From contig NC_088939.1 of assembly GCF_033473495.1 (NCBI RefSeq), positions 186,001 to 250,000 on the forward strand: a DNA stretch of 64,000 nt, given 5' to 3'. Position 1 is the first letter of the stretch. The number at the start of each line of letters is the position of its first letter. Both the position numbers and the translations under genes were made by a program. The stretch is from Cercospora beticola. Lineage: Eukaryota > Ascomycota > Dothideomycetes > Mycosphaerellales > Mycosphaerellaceae. The notes beneath the pieces are model-generated. The model was not told the DNA's origin. It did no database searches and saw nothing but the letters and a program-made list of their open reading frames with translations. Below are positions 17,865 through 58,431 of the stretch, piece after piece.

Positions 17865-18504
17865 TGGTGGAAGAGGGCTCAGGGTGAACAGTCATCGTAT
17901 TCTCATGTGCCGTCGGTGCAAGTTCTACGCTGGATAGACAGCAGCTTGCCAGCGTGAGATGAGTGGTAGCATCCAGCGCACTGGAGAACAGGACCGTGAT
18001 CAGAAATCCACACAGCCAACGATCTACCATGGCAGCTTTGGGCGATGTTTGGCGACTAAGCAATATTGCTGGCATCTTTCAACGTTTCTTAGCAGTAGGA
18101 CTCTCACGCGATTGCACACAGACAAGCTCTCATTCCTTGACTGGACCGCTCTTACGTAGACTGCAGTAGGCGCCATATCGTAGTTCTGAGACTATATTCG
18201 GACAGATACTGCTTGAAGGATCTGCCTGCTTTTGTGCTGCTCCAAATCCTTCCAATGCTTCATGCTCCTGGTCTTCGATTAAACTCCTCCGTGCGAGTCT
18301 CGTCTCGCAGTTCCGCTGGGCATATGTCGAGCCATTCAATCACCGCACGTGGCCCACAAATCACTCTCGTGTGTCAAGTGAAGTGACAAACAACGTTCTG
18401 CACGGTTCTCGAGCAAACGACGCCAAGGAATCTTGCTGTCACTCTTCCTTTCTCCGGCTCGAGCTTCTCAGGCTTTGATTCCAACAACACAACACAACCA
18501 CAAC
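17865..18504. other. spacer, no gene recognised
   Basis: No supported gene. The last 80 bp is a pyrimidine- then CA-rich leader ahead of the WW gene. Confidence 0.4.
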
Positions 18505-19500
18505 ATGGCCAAAGCCAAAGGCAAAGCAAAAGCTCGTACTGCACGCGCGAGTTGTCAGCGCTGTACGCAACTGCGGCTGTTCTGTGACGTTCCTGGTAGC
18601 TGTGCAGAGTGTCGCAAGAAAGGCTGCAACTGCAGTCCTGCGGGTAACGAGGTACCAGCAATGCGAAAGACTGCAGCCAGAGGCGACCCTCGAACTCCAC
18701 GCCGTTTTGGCGAAGGAGTCGAGTCAGGTCGCTCATTTCTCCAATCGTCGTCGACCGCTCCTCCACCTGCAGGCCAGCTTCCGCAAGGATGGCAATGTTT
18801 TCACGACTCCCAGGCCAATAGGGACTACTATGTCAGCCCAACAGGACACATTCAGTGGCAACACCCTCTGCAGGGCCCCATTCCTCCTCCACTGCCGCAA
18901 TCACTCCCTATTCAAGTTCGAGGATTGCCAGTCGGAAGATCTGGAATTGGACACGTGCAAAACGGTCCAGCCTATCCAAGACAAGACAACAAACGCAAGC
19001 GAGGGGAAGAAGACGCTCGGGATCTTCCAGCTCCTTTCAGAACACGCGCGTATGGTCACGGAGGCAGCACGATCTCCCATCCCGTAGCGCAGAGATTTCG
19101 CATCCCACCTCATATGCACACCAATGCGAATGCTGGTGGACCACCCAGTGCTCCTCGTAACATGAGACAGCCTCTATCAAGAGGAGAGCTCTTGGGCGGT
19201 TCTCGATACACTGGAGCGCCTGGGAGAGGCCGTCCGGGCGGCTCGCAGCGTGAATCACGGGCCGTGAAAAGCTTGCCATCCAACAGGGGCGGAGAAGGGA
19301 TTCTGCCTTCTCAGGCGGCACATGACGAGGCAGGGGGGTCGCAAGAGGTGTTGGAAGAGATACGAGCAAACGCACACGACGAGGCTGTCAAGACAGAGGA
19401 GGAAGGCGCCGCTGACGAGCAGGAGTTGGTGAAATCTGAGGAACCCGTGAGGGAAGAGGAGCCGCGCGATTTTGGCTTGAGGTCTCGCAGCAGAGGCTGA
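18505..19500 (+). CDS. Zn2Cys6 cluster fused to a WW domain
   Basis: A single-exon gene of 331 residues. Residues 17-43 have the spacing C-x2-C-x6-C-x5-C-x2-C-x6-C (CQRCTQLRLFC, then CAEC), which fits the fungal Zn(II)2Cys6 binuclear cluster, preceded by a Lys/Arg-rich N-terminus. Residues about 92-122 form a WW domain with W96, W118 and P121 (LPQGWQCFHDS... GHIQWQHP). A nuclear-type NKRKRGEED follows, then a Gly/Arg/Pro-rich region and an acidic C-terminus. Zn2Cys6 clusters usually bind DNA and WW domains bind Pro-rich peptides; pairing them in one small protein is unusual, and the usual fungal transcription factor middle domain is absent. The next gene downstream is a paralog. Confidence 0.75.
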   Translation: MAKAKGKAKARTARASCQRCTQLRLFCDVPGSCAECRKKGCNCSPAGNEVPAMRKTAARGDPRTPRRFGEGVESGRSFLQSSSTAPPPAGQLPQGWQCFHDSQANRDYYVSPTGHIQWQHPLQGPIPPPLPQSLPIQVRGLPVGRSGIGHVQNGPAYPRQDNKRKRGEEDARDLPAPFRTRAYGHGGSTISHPVAQRFRIPPHMHTNANAGGPPSAPRNMRQPLSRGELLGGSRYTGAPGRGRPGGSQRESRAVKSLPSNRGGEGILPSQAAHDEAGGSQEVLEEIRANAHDEAVKTEEEGAADEQELVKSEEPVREEEPRDFGLRSRSRG

Positions 19501-20353
19501 AATGGAAGAGACGCCGAGATCGAGAAACGAGCTCAGTGTTGAATACTGGATGGAACATCTCATGTCCGCAATGGGGAACAGCCGAGTCCCTTAGTGAGAC
19601 ATCGCATTTGGTACGGCACACTCCGAATGAATACCTGACATGCAGTGCAATGAGATTTGTCCAAAAGGCGAAGAGAGACGGATCGAGTAGAGGAGCAACT
19701 GTCAGGTCCGCTAGCTAGAGATTCATCCTTCACCAAATGGCAGACTTTCTCCACCAGATGGACTGTGAATTTGCCTTTCTTACGGGGTGACAAAGTGAAA
19801 TTGTAGAGCCTGCTGGATCGAGGAAGAGACCAGGGCATGCGGTGAGTCATTCCACAGTGTTCGACAGTCCGCCATACTCTTCATGGGCCCGACCCTCTTG
19901 TTGGAGAAGCGATGTGCTCCCGATGATCTTCGTGATTACAAGAGCTGCCAACTCACTCTGTCAAAATCGTCTGAACAATGACTTGTGGAAAAATTCAGTC
20001 GATCACCTACGTTGCCGCATTGCAGTGCCTCAGTTCACGCTCAAGACTTGACATAGCATCTGTAAGTTCACTCAGCTCGATATCAATTTAGCGAGTTCTC
20101 AGGAATTCCTTGACTTCCTTCAGCGAATGGGAGTTCGAAGCTCTTTTAAGGATATGTTGACCCCGCAGACCACCAAAAATGTCCAGGAGTCGATACATAC
20201 CCTGCTGTCTGGTCGCCGAATGCAAAGCATCATTGTGCAAAGGGGCATTGATCACCAACTATTTCACTATCAACTGTTCTCGCCTTCTTGACGCATTTCC
20301 CCGAGGTTTTCAAATCCTGGATATCAATAAAGCTTCCCCTCACAGGAGAAGGA
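19501..20353. other. spacer between the two WW genes
   Basis: No gene recognised. TATA-like TATATATG lies near 20383. A pyrimidine-rich acceptor-like ttttcag at about 20448 falls inside the next gene model. Confidence 0.4.
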
Positions 20354-21997
20354 ATGCTGGTGCTTCCAATATACATAGAGAAGTATATATGTGTCTCCTG
20401 TGCGTTGCATCTCAGGGGCTCTCCTTCATTCACTTATCATCTCTCCTTTTTCAGCAGCCATCTCCCAATCTCTCAAGAACGCCAAGACACAGCTTTCCCA
20501 TCATGCGGGGGTCCCTGTCAGCGCTGCGTGCAACGCCGTCTGCACTGTGACACTCCTGGGAATTGTTCAGAATGTCGCAGACAACGCATCCGTTGCTCCA
20601 ACGCAGGGAATGAGGTACCCGGAGGAAGCGGTGGGCCATCACATAGACCAGCGAAGGGGGTTGCTTCCAGCGATGAAGCTCAGCGGCATTTGGCAAGAGA
20701 TGATGATTTGGGTAGTAGAGCCCATCGAAACCTGACGAGAGGTGTTGCTTTCCGTAGCAGAGAGCATCGAGTCCTGACCGGCAGCGACCATTGGGATCCG
20801 GCAATGGATATTGCATTTGGTCATAGAGCCCGGCGGGATTTGACAAGGGCCGGCGCCCCTGGCGGAGATGTCGTACGCATGGGACCAGACCGTTCTATGG
20901 CGCGACCAACAGCGACTTCCGCTCCCTCCCAGCTGCCGCCAGCGCAGCCAATATCTACTTCTACTCCCCTGAGCCAGCATCCACCAGCGCAGACGGCGAC
21001 CACTACAGCTTCTGTGCGCAAGCCTCCACCAGCGCAGATGACATCCACTTCAGCTCCTGTACACAAGCCACCGCCAGCGCAGATGACATCGACTTCTGTT
21101 CCTCTGAACAAGCCGCCGCCAGCGCGGAAGGCATCAACGACTGCCCCTTTGACTCAGCCGCCACCAGCGCAAGCGGCACCATCTTCTGCTCCTCTGCACC
21201 TGGCACCATCTTCTGCTCCTCTGCACCTGGCACCACCAGCGCAGATGATGTCCACTCCCGCTCCTTCAGACCAGTCGCCATCGCCGCAAAGGACTGGGAT
21301 CTCTGTACCTTTGGGCCAGCCGTCGCCAGCGCCAACAGCATCAACTTCTGCTCCCTTGGAACAGCTGCCACCGGCGCAGACGGTCTCGATTGCTGCTCCG
21401 TTGGACCAGACACCAGAGCAGACAACATCGACTCTTGCTCCATTGGGCCAGCTGCCGCCAGATTGGGACGAGGTGTACGATCCCGACACGAATCGGCCTT
21501 TCTTCGTGAAATCCGGAGGTCACGTCCAGTGGCGGGATCCTCGGAGCGGCCCCCCACCTCCTCCTCTTCCGCCAGCTCCCGTCGTTCAACCGCATAGATC
21601 AACTCCTGCCCCTTTGGGCCAGTTGCCGCCAGGCTGGGACGAGGTGTACGATAAAGTCACAGAACAGCCTTTCTTCATCAATAATTCCTCGGGCCATGTC
21701 CAGTGGCGGCATCCTCGGCAGGCGCCACCTCCACCGCCTCCTCTCCCACCAGGCTGTGTTGTTCAACCGCATGGATTGCCTTCCATGAACGAGACCAAGC
21801 GCAAGCGTGATGAAGAACATGTACAGGGGCCTCCGATCCCTCTGGGCCCACGTGGGGATGGACCGGAAAGCAGCACGGCCTCCTTGGCTGTTCGAGCGCC
21901 AACCACTGCCGCACCTGTCCCGCCCAGTGTCAACGTTTCCTGTCCCACGATGCCACTAGCGATGCGTAACAGCAGTTCACGAACATTCGCTGTTTGA
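20354..21997 (+). CDS. expanded Zn2Cys6-WW paralog with Pro-rich repeats and two WW domains
   Basis: The frame encodes, in order: a Zn2Cys6 cluster (CQRCVQRRLHC, then CSEC, C-x2-C-x6-C-x5-C-x2-C-x6-C), an Arg/His linker, about a dozen imperfect 15-residue units of the type STSAPxxKPPPAQMT, two WW domains (LPPDWDEVYDPDTNRPFF and LPPGWDEVYDKVTEQPFF, each followed by GHVQWR and Pro), and KRKRDEE. The start is uncertain: the in-frame ATG at 20354 is far upstream, a strong acceptor at about 20448 suggests a spliced first exon, and the ATG at 20503 that aligns with the paralog is one base out of frame. At 21997 the frame ends, yet a neighbouring frame continues to 22313 in coding-like sequence (see separate entry). 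The Pro-rich repeats could be ligands for the WW domains. Confidence 0.6.
   Translation: MLVLPIYIEKYICVSCALHLRGSPSFTYHLSFFSSHLPISQERQDTAFPSCGGPCQRCVQRRLHCDTPGNCSECRRQRIRCSNAGNEVPGGSGGPSHRPAKGVASSDEAQRHLARDDDLGSRAHRNLTRGVAFRSREHRVLTGSDHWDPAMDIAFGHRARRDLTRAGAPGGDVVRMGPDRSMARPTATSAPSQLPPAQPISTSTPLSQHPPAQTATTTASVRKPPPAQMTSTSAPVHKPPPAQMTSTSVPLNKPPPARKASTTAPLTQPPPAQAAPSSAPLHLAPSSAPLHLAPPAQMMSTPAPSDQSPSPQRTGISVPLGQPSPAPTASTSAPLEQLPPAQTVSIAAPLDQTPEQTTSTLAPLGQLPPDWDEVYDPDTNRPFFVKSGGHVQWRDPRSGPPPPPLPPAPVVQPHRSTPAPLGQLPPGWDEVYDKVTEQPFFINNSSGHVQWRHPRQAPPPPPPLPPGCVVQPHGLPSMNETKRKRDEEHVQGPPIPLGPRGDGPESSTASLAVRAPTTAAPVPPSVNVSCPTMPLAMRNSSSRTFAV
20920..21465 (+). repeat. 45-bp coding minisatellite (15-residue Pro-rich units)
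   Basis: About a dozen imperfect 45-bp units encode variations of SAPLxQxPPAQTxST. An exact 27-bp tandem duplication lies inside it at about 21179-21234 (ccatcttctgctcctctgca, read twice). Confidence 0.75.
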
Positions 21998-52396: not shown

Positions 52397-54433
52397 TCAA
52401 AGCCCCAACAACCCTCCCAGACCTAATCCCAATAACCCGCCACCCCCAGCAGTAGCAGTGGGCGGTGCGGCGCCTACGACATAAGCAGCCGTATATCCAG
52501 ACATTGCATACGGGCACCTCGAACCACCACCCACGATCTCCATACACAAACCCGAAGTGTAATACAATCCAGTGCAAGTCCCAGTACATTGAGCAATGCA
52601 AGATGCCAAATTCGTGGTTGCAGCTCCAGTCCCGGAGTACGTCGCTGTAGCTCCACAGTGCGCGGCATTGCAAGTCATTTCAAATGCTCGGTTGTTGAGA
52701 GTTGTGATGGCGGAATTTGCTGCTGGGCAGACTGTTGGTGCAGGAGTAGGCTGGACAGATGGGCCAGGAGATTGGGGCGGACTGGCTGCAATGGTAGAGG
52801 TGAGTACTGCCGGAATTCTTGAGGTCGTGAAGGACGATGGCTGAGTTGCAGACGACGTGGGAAGTGGTAAAGATGCGACGGATACTGGGCTAGATGCGCT
52901 GACCGCTGCAGAAACTGCTAGTGAAGCTGAAATGGCCGGTTGCAAAGAGGACGCAACAGATGCGCTGACCGCCGCAGAGCCTGACAATGCAGCTGGATCA
53001 ACTGATTGCGAAGAGGACGCAACTTCTACCGAAGCAGTCGCGCTCGCCGTCACGGAGTCTGATGCGGAGATTGAAATTGGAGTAGCAGGTTGCGGAGTTG
53101 AAGCAGCTGACACTGAATCAGATAGGCTAGCCGCCGGAGAGTCTGATGTTGGAGCTGAAAGATCCGTTTCAGAAGACGAGGCAACTGGTACTGCGACAGA
53201 TACGCTAGGGACCGAAGTGTCTGGGTCTGTGACTGGCACTTGTGAAGAAGACACAACGTTTGTCGAGCTCAGTGTGTCCGCTGGAGACTCTGGGATCAAG
53301 GTCGGATCAGCCGCTTCCGAAGAGAATGTACCAAGCGTCGAGCTCAATATCTCCGTCGAAGAGTCTGAAATCGAGGCTGAACCAGCCACCTGTGAAGAAG
53401 ACACAACGATCGTCGAGCTCAGTGATTCCGCCAGAGAATCTGATGTTGAGACCTCGACGTCAACCTGGAAAGAGGACGCAATGAGTGTCGAGCTCGATAT
53501 GACGGCCGGAGAGTCCGAAATCGTAACTGGGGTAGCCGCCAGTTCAGAAGACACAGCAATCGTTGAGCTCAATATTTCCGCCGAAGAGTCTGAAATCGAG
53601 GCTGGAACAGCTGCTTGCGAAGACGAGGCATCAGTGGTCGAGCTGAGTACTGCTGTTTCGGAATCTGGAATCGAGACCGGAATAGCCGTCTGTGAGGAAG
53701 ATTCAACAGATGTCGAGCTCACTATTTCCGCTGGATAGTCTGATGTCGAGACTGAGATATCAGCTTGTGAAGATGAAGCAACAATTGTCGAGCTCAATGT
53801 TGCCGTGGGAGAGTCTGGAACCGAGACTGGAACAGCGGCTTGCGAAGAGGAAGCACCAAGTGTCGAGCTCAAAGTCGCCACAGGCAATGAGTCCACCGTC
53901 GTCGTAACTTGCACCTCACTTCCGCTCCCCACACTCGACACCTCGATCTCAAGCGGCGTGGTTGTCGCAGGCACAGCAGAAGCACCAGGCTGCCCCGTAA
54001 AATTATATCCCGTAACCCTCACATAAGCCGATGCCTCATCTCCCCAATCTCTCCAACCAGGCTGTGTCAGCAGTGGCGCAACCATTAAGATCCTGCAATA
54101 GCATTCTCCATCGTTATATCCGAAACCCAGACACTCGGAGCCAAATGTCTCACACGATAGAGCACAGTCATCTATGCCGCACTTGCCCCATTTCGTATCA
54201 CCGCCGCTCTCTGAGCTGTCGATCAGCATGTAAGGGCCGCCATAATTGTAGACATCACCGTTCCAGAATGTAGTTTTAATTGGGCAAGCGGCATCGGACA
54301 ATACGCCAGTTGCGGGCTCACAGGTGGGAGTAGCGGGAGCATTGGTGACAGTGGCTCGCCAGTTGGGAGGAGCTCCAGATTGCTGCGCGGAGGTAGAACT
54401 GATCCAGGCCAGGGGCAGAAGTGTGTAGTCCAT
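52397..54433 (-). CDS. Ser/Thr-rich cell-surface protein with Cys-rich ends
   Basis: A single-exon gene of 678 residues. A short signal peptide (MDYTLLPLAWISSTSAQQ) is followed by an N-terminal Cys domain (about 35-145: TFWNGDVYNYGGPYMLID, KCGIDDCALSCETFGSECLG, GECYC), similar in layout to PAN/apple- or WSC-like carbohydrate-binding modules of fungal walls. Residues about 190-390 are eight imperfect 25-residue Ser-rich repeats. More Ser/Thr/Ala/Pro sequence follows, then a second Cys cluster (VCPAANSAITTLNNRAFEMTC, CIAQCTGTCTGLYY) and a Gly/Leu-rich end GGGGLLGLGLGGLLGL. Heavy O-glycosylation is likely. No clear GPI signal: the C-terminus lacks a long hydrophobic tail. It may be a wall adhesin or sensor (inference). 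Confidence 0.75.
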   Translation of the reverse strand: MDYTLLPLAWISSTSAQQSGAPPNWRATVTNAPATPTCEPATGVLSDAACPIKTTFWNGDVYNYGGPYMLIDSSESGGDTKWGKCGIDDCALSCETFGSECLGFGYNDGECYCRILMVAPLLTQPGWRDWGDEASAYVRVTGYNFTGQPGASAVPATTTPLEIEVSSVGSGSEVQVTTTVDSLPVATLSSTLGASSSQAAVPVSVPDSPTATLSSTIVASSSQADISVSTSDYPAEIVSSTSVESSSQTAIPVSIPDSETAVLSSTTDASSSQAAVPASISDSSAEILSSTIAVSSELAATPVTISDSPAVISSSTLIASSFQVDVEVSTSDSLAESLSSTIVVSSSQVAGSASISDSSTEILSSTLGTFSSEAADPTLIPESPADTLSSTNVVSSSQVPVTDPDTSVPSVSVAVPVASSSETDLSAPTSDSPAASLSDSVSAASTPQPATPISISASDSVTASATASVEVASSSQSVDPAALSGSAAVSASVASSLQPAISASLAVSAAVSASSPVSVASLPLPTSSATQPSSFTTSRIPAVLTSTIAASPPQSPGPSVQPTPAPTVCPAANSAITTLNNRAFEMTCNAAHCGATATYSGTGAATTNLASCIAQCTGTCTGLYYTSGLCMEIVGGGSRCPYAMSGYTAAYVVGAAPPTATAGGGGLLGLGLGGLLGL
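53255..53860 (-). repeat. 75-bp coding minisatellite in the surface protein gene
   Basis: About eight units of 75 bp encode 25-residue repeats of the form ASSSQxxxPxSxxDSxAEILSSTxx. Units are diverged, with changes concentrated at the x positions. Confidence 0.7.
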
Positions 54434-54878
54434 ATTGATGTTAAATTAGGAGGCGATGGCCTGTACCAAGGGTATCCAGGATGCTGTACGCCTCAAAGGT
54501 AGCGCCCTGGTCGAGCTGGAAGTACTGCGCAGTGAGTCCATTTAGGCACGTGCGTGTGCATGCATTCTTCTACTGCGCATAACACGAAAGTCGGGCTCGG
54601 CTGGCCGTGAGAATTTCACGCAAGGGATATGAGCTTGATCTGCCCGGCAAGGCCGATATGTTATGCGAGCACTGTGCCGATTCCGTGTGCGCATAACATC
54701 AGGTGCTTGCTGGGTAGCATCCCATAGTGCCGGTATAATACCCACTGTCGCTATTGGCAGGTCAGAGCGTCGTGTCGCATACCGAAGTTGATGAATGCCT
54801 GTGATACCGTCAGTCTCCATAGAGACGAATCTTGGCTACAGAATATGGCGTCAGGGAATGTCATCTTGTGTCTGCAAC
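54434..54878. other. intergenic, no gene recognised
   Basis: Nothing supported; 3' end of the permease gene and promoter of the surface protein gene. Confidence 0.4.
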
Positions 54879-56550
54879 CTATCTCGGAGTCCAAGAAGGC
54901 ATCATCTCCATTGGGCGCTGCCTCAAACGCCGCTGACCGGAGATGAAAAAGCAGAGCGCATACGCTACCACAAAGCAATACAGTAAGAATGTCCAATTCA
55001 TATCTGCAGCGCTTGAACTGTGCATGGTAGGCCAAAAAGACCAGAAGAATGCCCAGACCGAGTACACTACTGCGATGACGTTGATCCAGATGCCAGCTCT
55101 ACCAAGTGACCAGCTAGCGCGTGGAAGGCCGTCTCCTTGAAGACGTCTGCGGATCAAACACCCAATCACAATAATGTAGGTCGTCATTAGCGTTGCGACT
55201 GCCAATCCCATCATAGTGTTGAGCGGTGCGGTCGTTGCGATAGTGACGAGAATCAGGACGAGGGCGAAGAATACGCTCGAATAGATGGCGTTGAGGGGGA
55301 CCTGCAGTCTTGCGTCGACTCTTCCGAACCACGGTGCCGAATAGAGTGCTCTGTCTCGCCTAAACAGCGTCAGCTTTGTAGCTTGAATCGCTGTCCACCA
55401 GAACTGACCCAAACGCGAAGAGATGGCGAGACGTCGTCACCATAGTGCTGACAGCAATCATAAAGAGTAGAGACATGACCACGACCAAGAAGCCGGTGGT
55501 GGCAGCGTCAGATTGTAGCGCCATAGACAGAACTGAAGCAAAAGGAACAATGGCTTCTGCTGTGGCCTCGAGATCCGAGACGTTGAATGCATAGGTCAGT
55601 AGTAGCAGAAGGGTGCCTGGAAGGTTCGCAAGATAGCTCCAGAGCATGCATCTTGGAAGCACAGTCTCTGGCTCCTCGACTTCTTCCGAGATGTGTACTG
55701 TGGCCTCACTTCCCAGGACTGTGAAGAAAGCAGGAATTTGTCCTACTAACACACCAAGGACTGGAGACGGCTAGCCACCACCATTGTCCGTGCAGTTGAA
55801 GAACACATCCGCGACAGATTGCTTCGGGGCCAGAACCCAGAGGGAAACGACGATAGGCACCAGAGCGTAGACATGGCAGATGGCAAACAACCCCTCGGCG
55901 ACCGAGAGATGGCTCGCTGCAAGCGCGTTGAACGCTGACACAACGATGAGGACTCCAAAAGTGAGGAGGTTGCGCTGCCAGCGTGTGGGAGAAAAGTCAT
56001 CATGGTTGATCTCGACAAGTGCCAGAACGACGCCGGCCAAGATGTAGCATATTGCAGTGAGTCTTGCCTGCCATCCGATCGAGCAGAGCGATCCGGTGAA
56101 ATACGAGAGGACCTGTTGGTATCGTGGAGGAGCGAATGCTGACGCCCAGCGGTACTGCCCACCCGTGGGAACCATAGAGCTAATCTCTGCCAGGGAAAGC
56201 ACGATGAACAGTTGGCCGACGTGCGCGAAGATGGTAGACCAGACGAGACCGGGCAGGCCGCCATTGAAGAGTATGTTGGAGTTGCCAGAAAGGAGCACCT
56301 CCTAGGTGCCGGTGACGAGAGATGTGAAGCCGATGGTGGAGACCAGGCGGAAGCTGTGCTGCATCTCTCGCTTGCGACTGACTGGTTCAACGGGGCGGAA
56401 GTCCATGGAGAGGCGCGCAGGACGACGCTTGGTAGAGAAGATGAACTCATCACTGCTTGGAGTATCTGGTGTCCGTGGCTTAGGGAAGTCGCTGGCGTGG
56501 GCGATCGGAAGATGAGGGCGTAGGGTGAGTGTTGAAGCTTCTGATTGCAT
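54879..56550 (-). pseudogene. APC-family permease interrupted by two in-frame TAG codons
   Basis: The reading frame from the ATG at 56550, with an intact 49-bp intron (55408-55360, gtcagt..tgtttag), spans 540 codons and ends at 54879. It encodes a polar N-terminus and about a dozen membrane segments of the APC superfamily, closest in feel to fungal GABA/choline permeases: TIGFTSLVTGT, LLSGNSNILFNGGLPGLVWS, EISSMVPTGGQYRWASAFAP, LVGQIPAFFTVLGSEATVHISEEVE and HLFAFG/RDRALYSAPWFG across the intron. TAG occurs at 56304-56302 in GT-TAG-EVLLSG and at 55773-55771 in GGG-TAG-PSPV; the family has Trp at both places (TWE and GGW). There is no frameshift and no TAA or TGA. Either it is a young pseudogene or UAG is recoded. 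Confidence 0.75.
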
Positions 56551-56817
56551 GTTGAAGTATGTGGGTGTGGGCGTGATATCGATGAGGGAGGAAAAGCAAG
56601 TAGTTTCAGAGCTGTATGGAGACAGCTAAGTCTCACAGCTGCCGCGTCTTCGTGACTTCCCGCAACGCGAATGCAACGCTGCTGCCTCTTCGGCTTCGAT
56701 GGCGACCGGATTGTTGCGAGTCGGCATCTCCAAGCACTCCATCCACGTTCGTCTTCCCGTGCAGACGCCTACACTCTGGCCGAGAACACGCATCCACCTT
56801 GAGCGCGATGCGTCTCC
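56551..56817. other. divergent promoter region
   Basis: A 267-bp region separates the start codons of the permease and the rhodopsin-fold gene, which are divergently transcribed and may share regulation. No specific element identified. Confidence 0.4.
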
Positions 56818-58431
56818 ATGTCCGGACTCGATATTCCTAGCGCAGCCGCATACATCGCCATCACCTGCTCCGTTGCTATTGTCTGGACCACCTTCACCTT
56901 CCTCATCCGCGCCTTTCTGCGTACGAAAGTCAACGGTCCCTTTGGTGCTGATGACACTGCATGTTTGGCTGCGACTGTAGGTGTCGCGCTTTGAGTTTCG
57001 TTGGTGATGAGTTGTTGACACCAGCAGATTCTCGGCGTCGCGCAATCTATTACGACACTCGTAGCGATCCACTTTGGCCTGGGATATCATGCTTACGCCC
57101 TCTCTATGTTCAGTTTCGAACGAGTTTTCCTCTGCACCTGGATCGCAGAACAGCTGTACATCCTGTCCGAGGGAGCTGCGCTGCTCTCAATCTCTTTCCT
57201 GATCCGGCGTATAACTTTGTTGCGAGAGCACCATCGGATCTGCTTTGCAGTCGCATACCTGACAGTGATCTGGGCACTGTCTTCATGGCTACTCCACATA
57301 TTCAAATGCCCCCTTCCTCGACCATGGGACATTCTGAATGCGGATAAGTGCCTCGATCGTATTGCGGTCCGTTTAAGCATTACGATTTCCGCAGCGCTCC
57401 TGGAAGTGACGAACGTCATCATCGCGATATACGTCGTCTAGAATGTGCAGATGTCGCGGCGCCCCAAGATTGCTGTCATGGTCGCTTTCCTGCTGCGGCT
57501 CCTGGTACTTCCAACCATGTTCCTCCGGTTTAACTTCTTCGCCAGTGCGGTGCATGAGGACGATGAGACCTACGTTCGAACAGACGTGACGATAATCACC
57601 CAGGTCGCAATGCATTTGAGCATCATCTTGGCCACAGTCCCCTGCGCGAAGCCCTTCTTCGTAATCTTTGAAGGCGGAGTTTTCCAGTCTCCAAACGATC
57701 AGCGCAGCAGGAGAACTATCTCGAACCTCAGCAGCGGGTGGAGGACACGAACCGGCGATGGCCAGCGATCAGACTCCAATGCGGCGCTGGAACGAGCAGA
57801 GCGAGCGGCCTTGCGACCGACCTAGGATCGACGTAGCACATTCGCGAGACCGAGCATATCAGCACTTGAGTCTCCACTGAGAGCTCCAACGTTGGAGCGT
57901 CCGTTGAAGAGAGTATCTCTGAAGCTCCCGCCACTGACGTGGAATCGGAGGAGGACATTCGCGAAGGAAGAAGGTCCTGCCCCACCACCGGATGCATGCC
58001 AGTATCATAAGCCATCCACGTCGAGCAAGTCCGATCCGCGGTCCAAGTCCTCCAGCAGCCATAGCTCGCGCACACGCTTGCAGCAGTATGCTGCTGAGAA
58101 TTCATCAAGACCTGAATACATGAATCGAGGGGAAAGTCACAATTCTGACCGGACCATTGGCCGCGATAGCCAACGCACCAGGAACATTCTGGCACCCATC
58201 TTGCGTCCAGACCAAGGAGAGACAACCACGATTATCGCGCATGACCCAGATGCTTTGAGAACGGGGTTGGCGGCCACCACCGCCGATCGCGAGGGCGTGC
58301 ATGAAGAACTAGCAAGTGGGGTCATTGAGCTGAGGACGGAAGTGGTCGTCACCTATGAAGATGCCGAGCATTCGAAGCCACAGCACAAGAATTCTGTAGG
58401 GCCAAAAGAGCGGAAACCTGTTGCATCGTAA
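56818..58431 (+). pseudogene. fungal rhodopsin-fold membrane protein interrupted by two in-frame TAG codons
   Basis: Exons 56818-56976 and 57028-58431 (intron gtaggt..cagcag, 51 bp) form one frame of 520 codons. Seven hydrophobic helices include YIAITCSVAIVWTTFTFLI, GVAQSITTLVAIHFGLGYH, RVFLCTWIAEQLYILSEGA, CFAVAYLTVIWALSSWLLHI, ITISAALLEVTNVIIAIYVV and IAVMVAFLLRLLVLPTMFLR. The tail has LRPDQGETTTIIAHDPD and VTYEDAEH, typical of this large fungal family (SAT4-like/rhodopsin domain), whose function is mostly unknown. TAG codons lie at 57439-57441 (IYVV-TAG-NVQ, where the family usually has Trp) and at 57823-57825 (ALRPT-TAG-DRR, in the cytosolic tail). Otherwise the frame is undamaged, so recoding or recent loss are both possible. 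Confidence 0.7.

What the first reader, a model, noticed from the sequence alone, without database searches (positions are those of the whole stretch)
54879..58431. Four in-frame UAG codons, and no other lesion, in two adjacent membrane-protein genes
The permease (minus strand) and the rhodopsin-fold gene (plus strand) are divergent neighbours. Each has a complete frame and a normal intron, and each is broken only by two TAG codons. Random decay would be expected to add TAA, TGA and frameshifts. Three TAGs sit where the families have a Trp (TGG). A-to-I editing of mRNA in sexual tissue, which turns UAG into UGG in some ascomycetes (Fusarium, Neurospora), is established; whether this fungus does it is inference. 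Stop readthrough or a suppressor tRNA are alternatives. RIP-type CpA-to-TpA mutation would also give TGG to TAG, but normally damages many sites.
Basis: partly seen in the sequence, partly recalled or inferred. Interest (0 to 1): 0.88.

Follow-up and report, generated by a model that had tools for sequence, protein, structure and literature searches.

The report
Conserved stop codons in paired genes
Two neighbouring membrane-protein genes of a Cercospora fungus carry four stop codons exactly where related proteins have tryptophan, at least two of them apparently shared with a sister species, which suggests that the fungus recodes the messages (probably by RNA editing) rather than having lost the genes.

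Summary
An amino-acid permease gene (minus strand) and a fungal-rhodopsin gene (plus strand), divergent across 267 bp, each have an open frame, one ordinary intron and two in-frame TAGs. All four TAGs, not three, lie where relatives have Trp. The genome is a Cercospora. Public gene models imply stops at sites 1 and 3 in C. kikuchii and at sites 1 and 2 in C. berteroae, with the artefacts described for an edited stop in Fusarium CHE1. Septoria linicola and Zymoseptoria tritici models also avoid site 1 or 3. Protein past the shared stops stays constrained: 3.7% change in the permease and 6.6% in the rhodopsin domain, against 21.5% in the rhodopsin tail. In 39 other family matches of this genome with stops, these lie in or beside introns, read by eye. 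RIP indices are ordinary. Simple decay fits poorly; A-to-I editing of UAG to UGG fits best. No RNA, and no DNA of the relatives, was available; I saw no report of editing in Dothideomycetes; TAG1 and TAG3 could also serve as 3' splice sites; and the rhodopsin C-terminal half changes faster in the window with two of three outgroups.

The parts
54879..56550 (-). Amino-acid permease gene (AA_permease_2), 541 codons incl. stop; exons 56550-55409 and 55359-54879, intron 55408-55360
56302..56304 (-). TAG1, codon 83, at a Trp in the family; apparently shared with C. kikuchii and C. berteroae (deduced from gene models)
55771..55773 (-). TAG2, codon 260; Trp in C. kikuchii; the C. berteroae model skips it
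56302..56382 (-). 81-nt stretch that could be spliced in frame (GTCAGT...ACCTAG); coding in Pseudocercospora, Zasmidium, Lecanosticta and more distant relatives
56551..56817 (.). 267-bp region between the two start codons (possible bidirectional promoter; inference)
56818..58431 (+). Fungal rhodopsin-domain (PF20684) membrane protein gene with a long C-terminal tail, 521 codons incl. stop; exons 56818-56976 and 57028-58431, intron 56977-57027
57439..57441 (+). TAG3, codon 191; the C. kikuchii protein P0047 ends exactly before it; Trp in C. zeina
57823..57825 (+). TAG4, codon 319, in the motif PTWDRR; Trp in all 7 of 8 relatives that cover it
57367..57441 (+). 75-nt stretch that could be spliced in frame (GTCCGT...GTCTAG), ending at TAG3

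Best explanation
The two genes are not dead. They are read past their UAG codons, most likely because A-to-I deamination of the mRNA turns UAG into UIG, read as UGG (Trp), in a stage or condition in which the pair is expressed. The stops then act as an off-switch for the full-length permease and the receptor-like protein elsewhere. Shown: four TAGs at Trp positions, no other lesion. Deduced from public gene models, not from DNA: a stop at sites 1 and 3 in C. kikuchii and at sites 1 and 2 in C. berteroae. Shown on proteins: constraint past the shared stops. Inferred: that recoding is by editing, the enzyme (Tad2-Tad3 with a cofactor, or an OTT_1508-type deaminase, of which this genome has at least four), the stage, and the shared promoter.
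For: (1) All four sites are Trp in relatives, the residue that UAG-to-UGG editing gives; chance 2.4e-4 for random nonsense mutation at transition weight 2, 0.05 for RIP-type change only. (2) The C. kikuchii and C. berteroae permease models both join RPVEP to EVLL. If the DNA around is like the window's and the splice is GT-AG, an AG must stand directly before the GAG codon, so codon 83 ends in AG there too, TAG being one step from TGG. C. kikuchii P0047 (190 aa) ends exactly at site 3 and P0042 starts downstream; the three C. kikuchii models bear consecutive locus numbers. (3) S. linicola P0043 lacks 11 residues over site 3 and P0003 starts nine residues past site 1; Z. tritici P0010 skips about 33 residues around site 1. 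These are the three kinds of wrong model described for the conserved edited stop of CHE1 (PMC11169179 passages). (4) Window versus C. kikuchii: 17 of 456 residues differ in the permease after TAG1, 17 of 259 in the rhodopsin domain, 50 of 233 in the tail; Fisher 8.7e-13 and 1.4e-6. If dead since the shared stops arose, about 15 or more new nonsense changes would be expected, 2 are seen (P 4e-5; the script assumes that 72% of changes alter the residue and 4.2% make a stop). (5) The flanks fit the Fusarium editing preference better than the 21 TGG codons left in the genes (one-sided Mann-Whitney 0.028; preference from PMC9600606 section 6). (6) TAG is an ordinary terminator here: it ends 21 of 76 stop-to-stop runs of 300 codons or more, overlapping loci and antisense runs included, and no other true in-frame stop was found in the matches read of the two families (the permease family only partly scored). 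(7) Four OTT_1508 deaminase matches with intact HAE and CxxC.
Against: No RNA was seen. [quoted passage not shown] the Tad3-Ame1 interaction is said to originate in Sordariomycetes (PMC11087585 passages). Only 2 of 4 sites are predicted in hairpin loops (probabilities 0.36, 1.00, 0.99, 0.07; control: above 0.5 in 35% of 93 other UA sites). TAG1 and TAG3 each have an in-frame GTNNGT donor (60 of 972 codons do), which favours a splicing role for those two. The C-terminal half of the rhodopsin gene (residues 217-520) changes faster in the window than in C. kikuchii with two of three outgroups (21:13 and 37:12, but 10:11 with S. linicola). Within the permease the window-C. kikuchii differences fall only weakly on variable columns (4 of 164 conserved, 6 of 187 middling, 7 of 109 variable; conserved against variable P 0.12). 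The stops of other species are deduced from gene models, whose DNA I did not see; the kind of stop at site 3 of C. kikuchii is unknown. C. zeina has Trp at site 3.
Confidence: 0.5

Rival explanations
1. The pair is decaying: both genes lost their use in part of Cercospora, and the TAGs are C-to-T type nonsense mutations, shared between species by descent, introgression or polymorphism, that have not yet been followed by other lesions.
For: TAG is a single-transition product of TGG, and RIP-type mutation makes TAG rather than TGA from TGG; under RIP-type change only, four of four at Trp has P 0.05. Faster change of the C-terminal half of the window rhodopsin gene with two of three outgroups. 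A Trp of the tail kept in relatives (codon 391) is Arg in the window.
Against: RIP indices of both genes are those of the rest of the window (TpA/ApT 0.60 and 0.46, 4-kb segments 0.41-0.68; (CpA+TpG)/(ApC+GpT) 1.31 and 1.36, segments 1.24-1.44). No frameshift, TAA or TGA in the 3.2 kb of the window; about 15 or more nonsense changes expected if neutral since the shared stops, 2 seen. In C. kikuchii no further stop shows in the parts its models cover; permease residues 57-83 and rhodopsin residues 191-216 are not covered. Permease and rhodopsin domain are 3 to 6 times more conserved than the tail. The window permease does not evolve faster than that of C. kikuchii (4:8 and 4:9 with two outgroups); the N-terminal half of the rhodopsin gene gives 1:7, 4:2 and 3:2 with three outgroups.
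Confidence: 0.25
2. Intronisation: TAG1 and TAG3 are 3' splice sites of new, optional in-frame introns (81 and 75 nt), and the genes make shortened proteins or use intron retention as a switch.
For: Each of the two has a GTNNGT donor in phase 0; 60 of 972 codons do, so two or more of four has P 0.02. The junction of the C. kikuchii and C. berteroae permease models is that of this 81-nt stretch. In Fusarium FgBUD14 both editing and alternative splicing around the stop are reported (PMC11156358, parts 1-2 of 3 read).
Against: TAG2 and TAG4 have no such donor. The removed pieces would hold most of a first and a fifth helix that relatives keep (the helix assignment is inferred). The 25 codons before TAG3 differ by one residue from C. 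kikuchii, P 0.019 against the tail rate, although the tail is no strict neutral standard. The C. kikuchii rhodopsin models and the S. linicola model do not use that intron. The stretch ending at TAG3 has no match to the branch pattern tried; the one ending at TAG1 has one.
Confidence: 0.13
3. UAG is read through by the ribosome, with or without a suppressor tRNA.
For: It would also keep the frame under selection. No direct evidence.
Against: Readthrough has no reason to choose Trp sites or UAG; UGA would be the likelier way to insert Trp (recalled). Two stops per gene would multiply losses. A general UAG suppressor should leave TAG elsewhere; none was found in the matches read of the two families, and TAG ends 21 of 76 long runs. 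Suppressor tRNA: 5 of the 92 places matching a CTA-anticodon pattern (41 forward, 51 reverse) overlap one of the 30 tRNA matches; 4 have the motif near the 5' end, in the D arm by my reading, and the fifth is tRNA-Val(AAC) by ARAGORN. Three further places with nearly the same sequence gave no ARAGORN gene in the short stretches fetched. Only 62 of 905 tRNA candidates were scored, so a suppressor is not excluded.
Confidence: 0.07
4. Assembly or base-calling error at the four sites.
For: Raw reads were not available.
Against: Independent assemblies of C. kikuchii and C. berteroae behave as if they had stops at sites 1, 3 and 1, 2.
Confidence: 0.02

Closest known systems
Premature-stop-correction (PSC) A-to-I edited genes of Fusarium and Neurospora (PUK1, AMD1 and others; sexual stage, Tad2-Tad3-Ame1)
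   Same: In-frame UAG at a place where a full-length protein needs UGG; two stops in one gene as in PUK1; AMD1 is also a transporter-type (MFS) membrane protein; frame otherwise intact; U at -1, pyrimidine at -2
   Different: Dothideomycetes, for which I saw no report of editing; RNA not seen; two adjacent divergent genes; hairpin loop predicted at only two of four sites
CHE1 of Fusarium graminearum (conserved hyphal PSC editing)
   Same: Stop conserved among related species and the same three kinds of wrong gene models (stop as end, start at downstream Met, small bogus intron)
   Different: CHE1 is a C2H2 transcription factor with one site; here permease and rhodopsin-fold genes with two sites each; there the DNA and RNA were seen, here not
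OLD-ZAO antiviral editing of Neurospora crassa
   Same: Few targets, UAG correction, U at -1; this genome has four OTT_1508 deaminase matches with intact catalytic residues
   Different: Targets here are not zinc-finger genes and do not lie beside a deaminase; no listed C2H2 match within 50 kb of the four deaminase places
RIP-inactivated genes
   Same: C-to-T changes giving TAG from TGG
   Different: RIP indices ordinary; no Gln-to-stop change among the four

Membership tests
PSC-edited genes of filamentous ascomycetes | In-frame UAG inside an otherwise intact coding sequence | tested here: met
PSC-edited genes of filamentous ascomycetes | UGG (Trp) is the expected codon at the site | tested here: met
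   W is the commonest residue at sites 1, 2 and 4 and at 2 of 3 covered relatives at site 3
PSC-edited genes of filamentous ascomycetes | Stop conserved in related species, with typical mis-annotation (described for CHE1) | tested here: inconclusive
   gene models of C. kikuchii (sites 1, 3) and C. berteroae (sites 1, 2) behave so; their DNA was not seen, and C. zeina has Trp at site 3
PSC-edited genes of filamentous ascomycetes | Preferred flanks (-2 C/U, -1 U, +1 A/G, +2 G, +3 and +4 A/G) | tested here: met
   scores at the four variable positions 4, 2, 2, 3 against the 21 TGG codons left, one-sided Mann-Whitney 0.028; a small sample
PSC-edited genes of filamentous ascomycetes | Edited A in a predicted hairpin loop | tested here: inconclusive
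   2 of 4 sites
PSC-edited genes of filamentous ascomycetes | A-to-G mismatch between DNA and RNA | not testable with these tools
   no RNA reads on hand
PSC-edited genes of filamentous ascomycetes | Editing activator Ame1 able to bind Tad3 | not tested
   two DUF726 loci exist; the deciding residues were not aligned, since no Fusarium Ame1 sequence was fetched
OLD-ZAO system | OTT_1508-like deaminase with HxE and CxxC | tested here: met
   4 of 4 matches; orthology to OLD not tested
OLD-ZAO system | C2H2 zinc-finger gene next to the deaminase gene | tested here: not met
   none of the 150 PF00096 matches listed lies within 50 kb of any of the four; (177 candidates, 150 scored)
RIP-inactivated gene | Raised TpA/ApT and lowered (CpA+TpG)/(ApC+GpT) | tested here: not met
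   0.60/1.31 and 0.46/1.36
Amino acid permease AA_permease_2 (PF13520) | Profile match over the curated cut-off | tested here: met
   three separate pieces, 49, 30 and 39.1 bits, cut-off 27
Fungal rhodopsin domain (PF20684) | Profile match over the curated cut-off | tested here: met
   two separate pieces, 49.6 and 37.1 bits, cut-off 27

The most novel reading that the evidence does not exclude
A UAG switch kept through several genera of Mycosphaerellaceae at the same Trp codons of two divergently transcribed genes: a receptor-like protein and an amino-acid permease that are made full-length only when an A-to-I deaminase is active. It would be the first restorative mRNA editing known in Dothideomycetes as far as my searches reach, perhaps by an OTT_1508-type deaminase with few targets rather than by the Sordariomycete Tad2-Tad3-Ame1 complex.
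Probability: 0.33. Interest if true: 0.88.

Novelty: new member of a known kind. Interest (0 to 1): 0.72.

Why it matters
Which fungal groups outside Sordariomycetes and some Pezizomycetes edit mRNA is stated as undetermined in a 2024 review (PMC11156358). A pair of genes with stops at Trp codons, apparently conserved in Cercospora and perhaps in Septoria and Zymoseptoria, gives named positions at which RNA-seq can settle the question for Dothideomycetes. It would also mean that automated annotation has been splitting or trimming such genes in this large group of plant-associated fungi.

Tried and rejected
RIP: indices ordinary. General code change or family-wide decay: among 98 PF20684 matches in this genome (124 of 124 candidates scored), 34 hold a stop inside; one is the window gene and the other 33 were read by eye, every stop lying in or at the edge of an intron-like stretch. 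Among 22 PF13520 matches 6 hold stops, all intronic by eye, but only 20 of 88 candidates were scored and the window permease is not among the matches. A codon-usage scan for interrupted frames in about 350 kb, with overlapping loci, had too little power: the four known sites ranked 12, 16, 20 and 480 of 1547 isolated stops. Suppressor tRNA: tRNA matches and a CTA-anticodon pattern compared by position, one overlap resolved as tRNA-Val(AAC); nothing found, coverage partial (62 of 905 tRNA candidates scored). OLD-ZAO pair: deaminases yes, zinc-finger neighbour no. A second rhodopsin search, with an alignment, added one protein, the decisive P0047. Paper searches. Ame1 residues could not be compared. 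No structure prediction was run, since it would not separate the hypotheses.
Full report
What is there. The window is G000:C5:186001-250000 of a 36.07 Mb, 10-contig genome. On the minus strand lies an amino-acid permease gene (start 56550, end 54879), on the plus strand a gene with the fungal rhodopsin domain (56818-58431). Both frames are complete, each with one short GT-AG intron, and each has two TAG codons: 83 and 260 in the permease, 191 and 319 in the rhodopsin gene. Nothing else is broken.

All four stops are at Trp. In 39 permease homologues site 1 is W in 28, L in 2 distant ones and not covered in 9; site 2 is W in 32, Y in 3, F in 2, not covered in 2. In 8 rhodopsin-gene relatives site 3 is W in 2, L in 1, not covered in 5; site 4 is W in 7, not covered in 1. 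For random nonsense mutation in these two genes the share of Trp-to-TAG is 0.124 at transition weight 2, so four of four is 2.4e-4; if only CpA-to-TpA changes are allowed the share is 0.472 and four of four is 0.05.

The stops look shared. The C. kikuchii permease model (P0001) and the C. berteroae model (P0002) both run from ...RPVEP straight into EVLLSG..., leaving out 27 residues that end at site 1. With the window DNA as guide and a GT-AG splice this needs a donor after CCA and an acceptor AG directly before GAG; TGG has no AG, so codon 83 ends in AG in those species, that is TAG by one step. For the rhodopsin gene, C. kikuchii has two consecutive models: P0047, 190 residues, ending exactly before site 3, and P0042, starting at a Met downstream. 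The kind of stop there is unknown. At site 2 C. kikuchii has W; the C. berteroae model jumps over the site. C. zeina has W at sites 3 and 4, so sites differ within the genus. Septoria linicola P0043 lacks 11 residues over site 3, which would be a 33-nt intron, and P0003 starts nine residues after site 1; Zymoseptoria tritici P0010 lacks about 33 residues around site 1; two rhodopsin ORFs of unnamed source (P0045, P0046) start four residues after site 3 and one permease ORF (P0028) two residues after site 1. Each of these alone is weak; together they are the three mis-annotations reported for the conserved edited stop of CHE1 in Fusarium (PMC11169179, passages read). DNA of these relatives was not seen.

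The genes are constrained past the stops. Between window and C. kikuchii 17 of 456 permease residues after TAG1 differ, 17 of 259 in the rhodopsin domain and 50 of 233 in its tail (Fisher 8.7e-13 and 1.4e-6). Genes dead since the common ancestor would diverge evenly. Using the tail as a lower bound for neutral change, and assuming that 72% of changes alter the residue and 4.2% make a stop, about 15 or more new nonsense changes would be expected over both branches; two are seen, both in the window (P 4e-5). C. kikuchii models do not cover permease residues 57-83 and rhodopsin residues 191-216. In 12 or 13 informative permease sites the window lineage has fewer changes than C. kikuchii (4:8 with S. 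linicola, 4:9 with Pseudocercospora musae as outgroup); the N-terminal half of the rhodopsin gene gives 1:7, 4:2 and 3:2 with C. zeina, P0041 and S. linicola. Against this, its C-terminal half changes faster in the window with C. zeina (21:13) and P0041 (37:12), not with S. linicola (10:11), and permease differences fall only weakly on variable columns (4 of 164 conserved against 7 of 109 variable, P 0.12). These tests rest on the stops being shared by descent.

It looks local to this pair. In the same genome 34 of 98 PF20684 matches hold a stop; apart from the window gene all 33 were read by eye and lie in or beside introns. Six of 22 PF13520 matches hold stops, all intronic by eye, with only 20 of 88 candidates scored. 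TAG ends 21 of 76 stop-to-stop runs of 300 codons or more in the window and the loci held then, overlapping loci and antisense runs included. So UAG is not reassigned and the rhodopsin family is not decaying as a whole. Other families were not surveyed.

Mechanism. RIP indices are ordinary. Readthrough has no reason to choose UAG at Trp sites; a suppressor tRNA was looked for in part only. A-to-I editing of UAG gives UGG and so predicts both features. The flanks of the four sites fit the Fusarium preference (PMC9600606, section 6) better than the 21 TGG codons left in the genes (one-sided Mann-Whitney 0.028); TAG1 fits at all six positions. Sites 2 and 3 are predicted in hairpin loops, 1 and 4 mostly not. 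For the enzyme there are two candidates: the Tad2-Tad3 complex with an Ame1-type cofactor (two DUF726 loci here, though the interaction is said to originate in Sordariomycetes, PMC11087585, passages), and OTT_1508-type deaminases, of which four matches have intact HAE and CxxC. An OTT_1508 deaminase, OLD, edits premature UAG in few targets in Neurospora (PMC12754623, parts 1 and 2 of 3). No listed zinc-finger match lies within 50 kb of the four.

A serious rival for two sites is splicing. TAG1 and TAG3 each close a stretch (81 and 75 nt) that could be an in-frame intron with a GTNNGT donor; 60 of 972 codons have such a donor, so two or more of four has a chance of 0.02. The removed pieces would hold a helix that relatives keep (helix assignment inferred), the stretch before TAG3 is conserved as protein (1 of 25 differs), and TAG2 and TAG4 have no donor. 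Editing and alternative splicing at one stop are both reported for FgBUD14 (PMC11156358, parts 1 and 2 of 3), so they do not exclude each other.

Literature. In the listings, openings of abstracts and passages that I saw, no A-to-I mRNA editing is reported in a Dothideomycete (searches; one search listed 25 of 104 papers). The review PMC11156358 names Sordariomycetes and Pyronema, reports none found in Aspergillus nidulans and Botrytis cinerea, and calls the rest undetermined. C. beticola has no known teleomorph but balanced mating types in some populations (PMC13195098, passages). PMC5496914 was seen in the search listing only; AMD1 is described in it and in PMC11156358.

Verdict. That the genes are recoded rather than dead I put at about 0.7 (editing, splicing or readthrough together), editing as the way at 0.5. 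Only RNA can settle it.

Noticed in passing
P0041 (ENA contig of 2285 nt) against the window rhodopsin gene: Its membrane half differs at 104 of 284 residues from the window but its tail is closer to C. kikuchii (32 of 234 differ): it looks like a recombinant or gene-converted copy.
   Followed up: no
G000:C2:1246376, C8:632901, C2:5067489, C2:1821989: Four OTT_1508-type deaminase matches with intact HAE and CxxC motifs, candidates for an editing enzyme.
   Followed up: partly
G000:C4:1776480-1777490 and C1:5127666-5128765: Two DUF726 loci (three matches), the family of the editing activator Ame1.
   Followed up: no
P0002, C. berteroae permease model, C-terminus: The model also jumps near window codon 482 to a different C-terminus (AVYS to AFINFG), as if a further stop lay in that Trp-rich stretch.
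   Followed up: no
window codon 391 of the rhodopsin gene (about 58039): A Trp kept in the three Cercospora relatives that cover it (SDPWSKSSSS) is Arg in the window, a possible sign of relaxed constraint.
   Followed up: partly
window 18382-21997: Two neighbouring plus-strand ORFs with a Cys-rich N-terminal part and WW-like segments among Pro/Gln-rich repeats.
   Followed up: no
window 52397-54445, minus strand: A 682-aa ORF with long Ser/Thr/Ala-rich repeats between Cys-containing ends, next to the permease.
   Followed up: no
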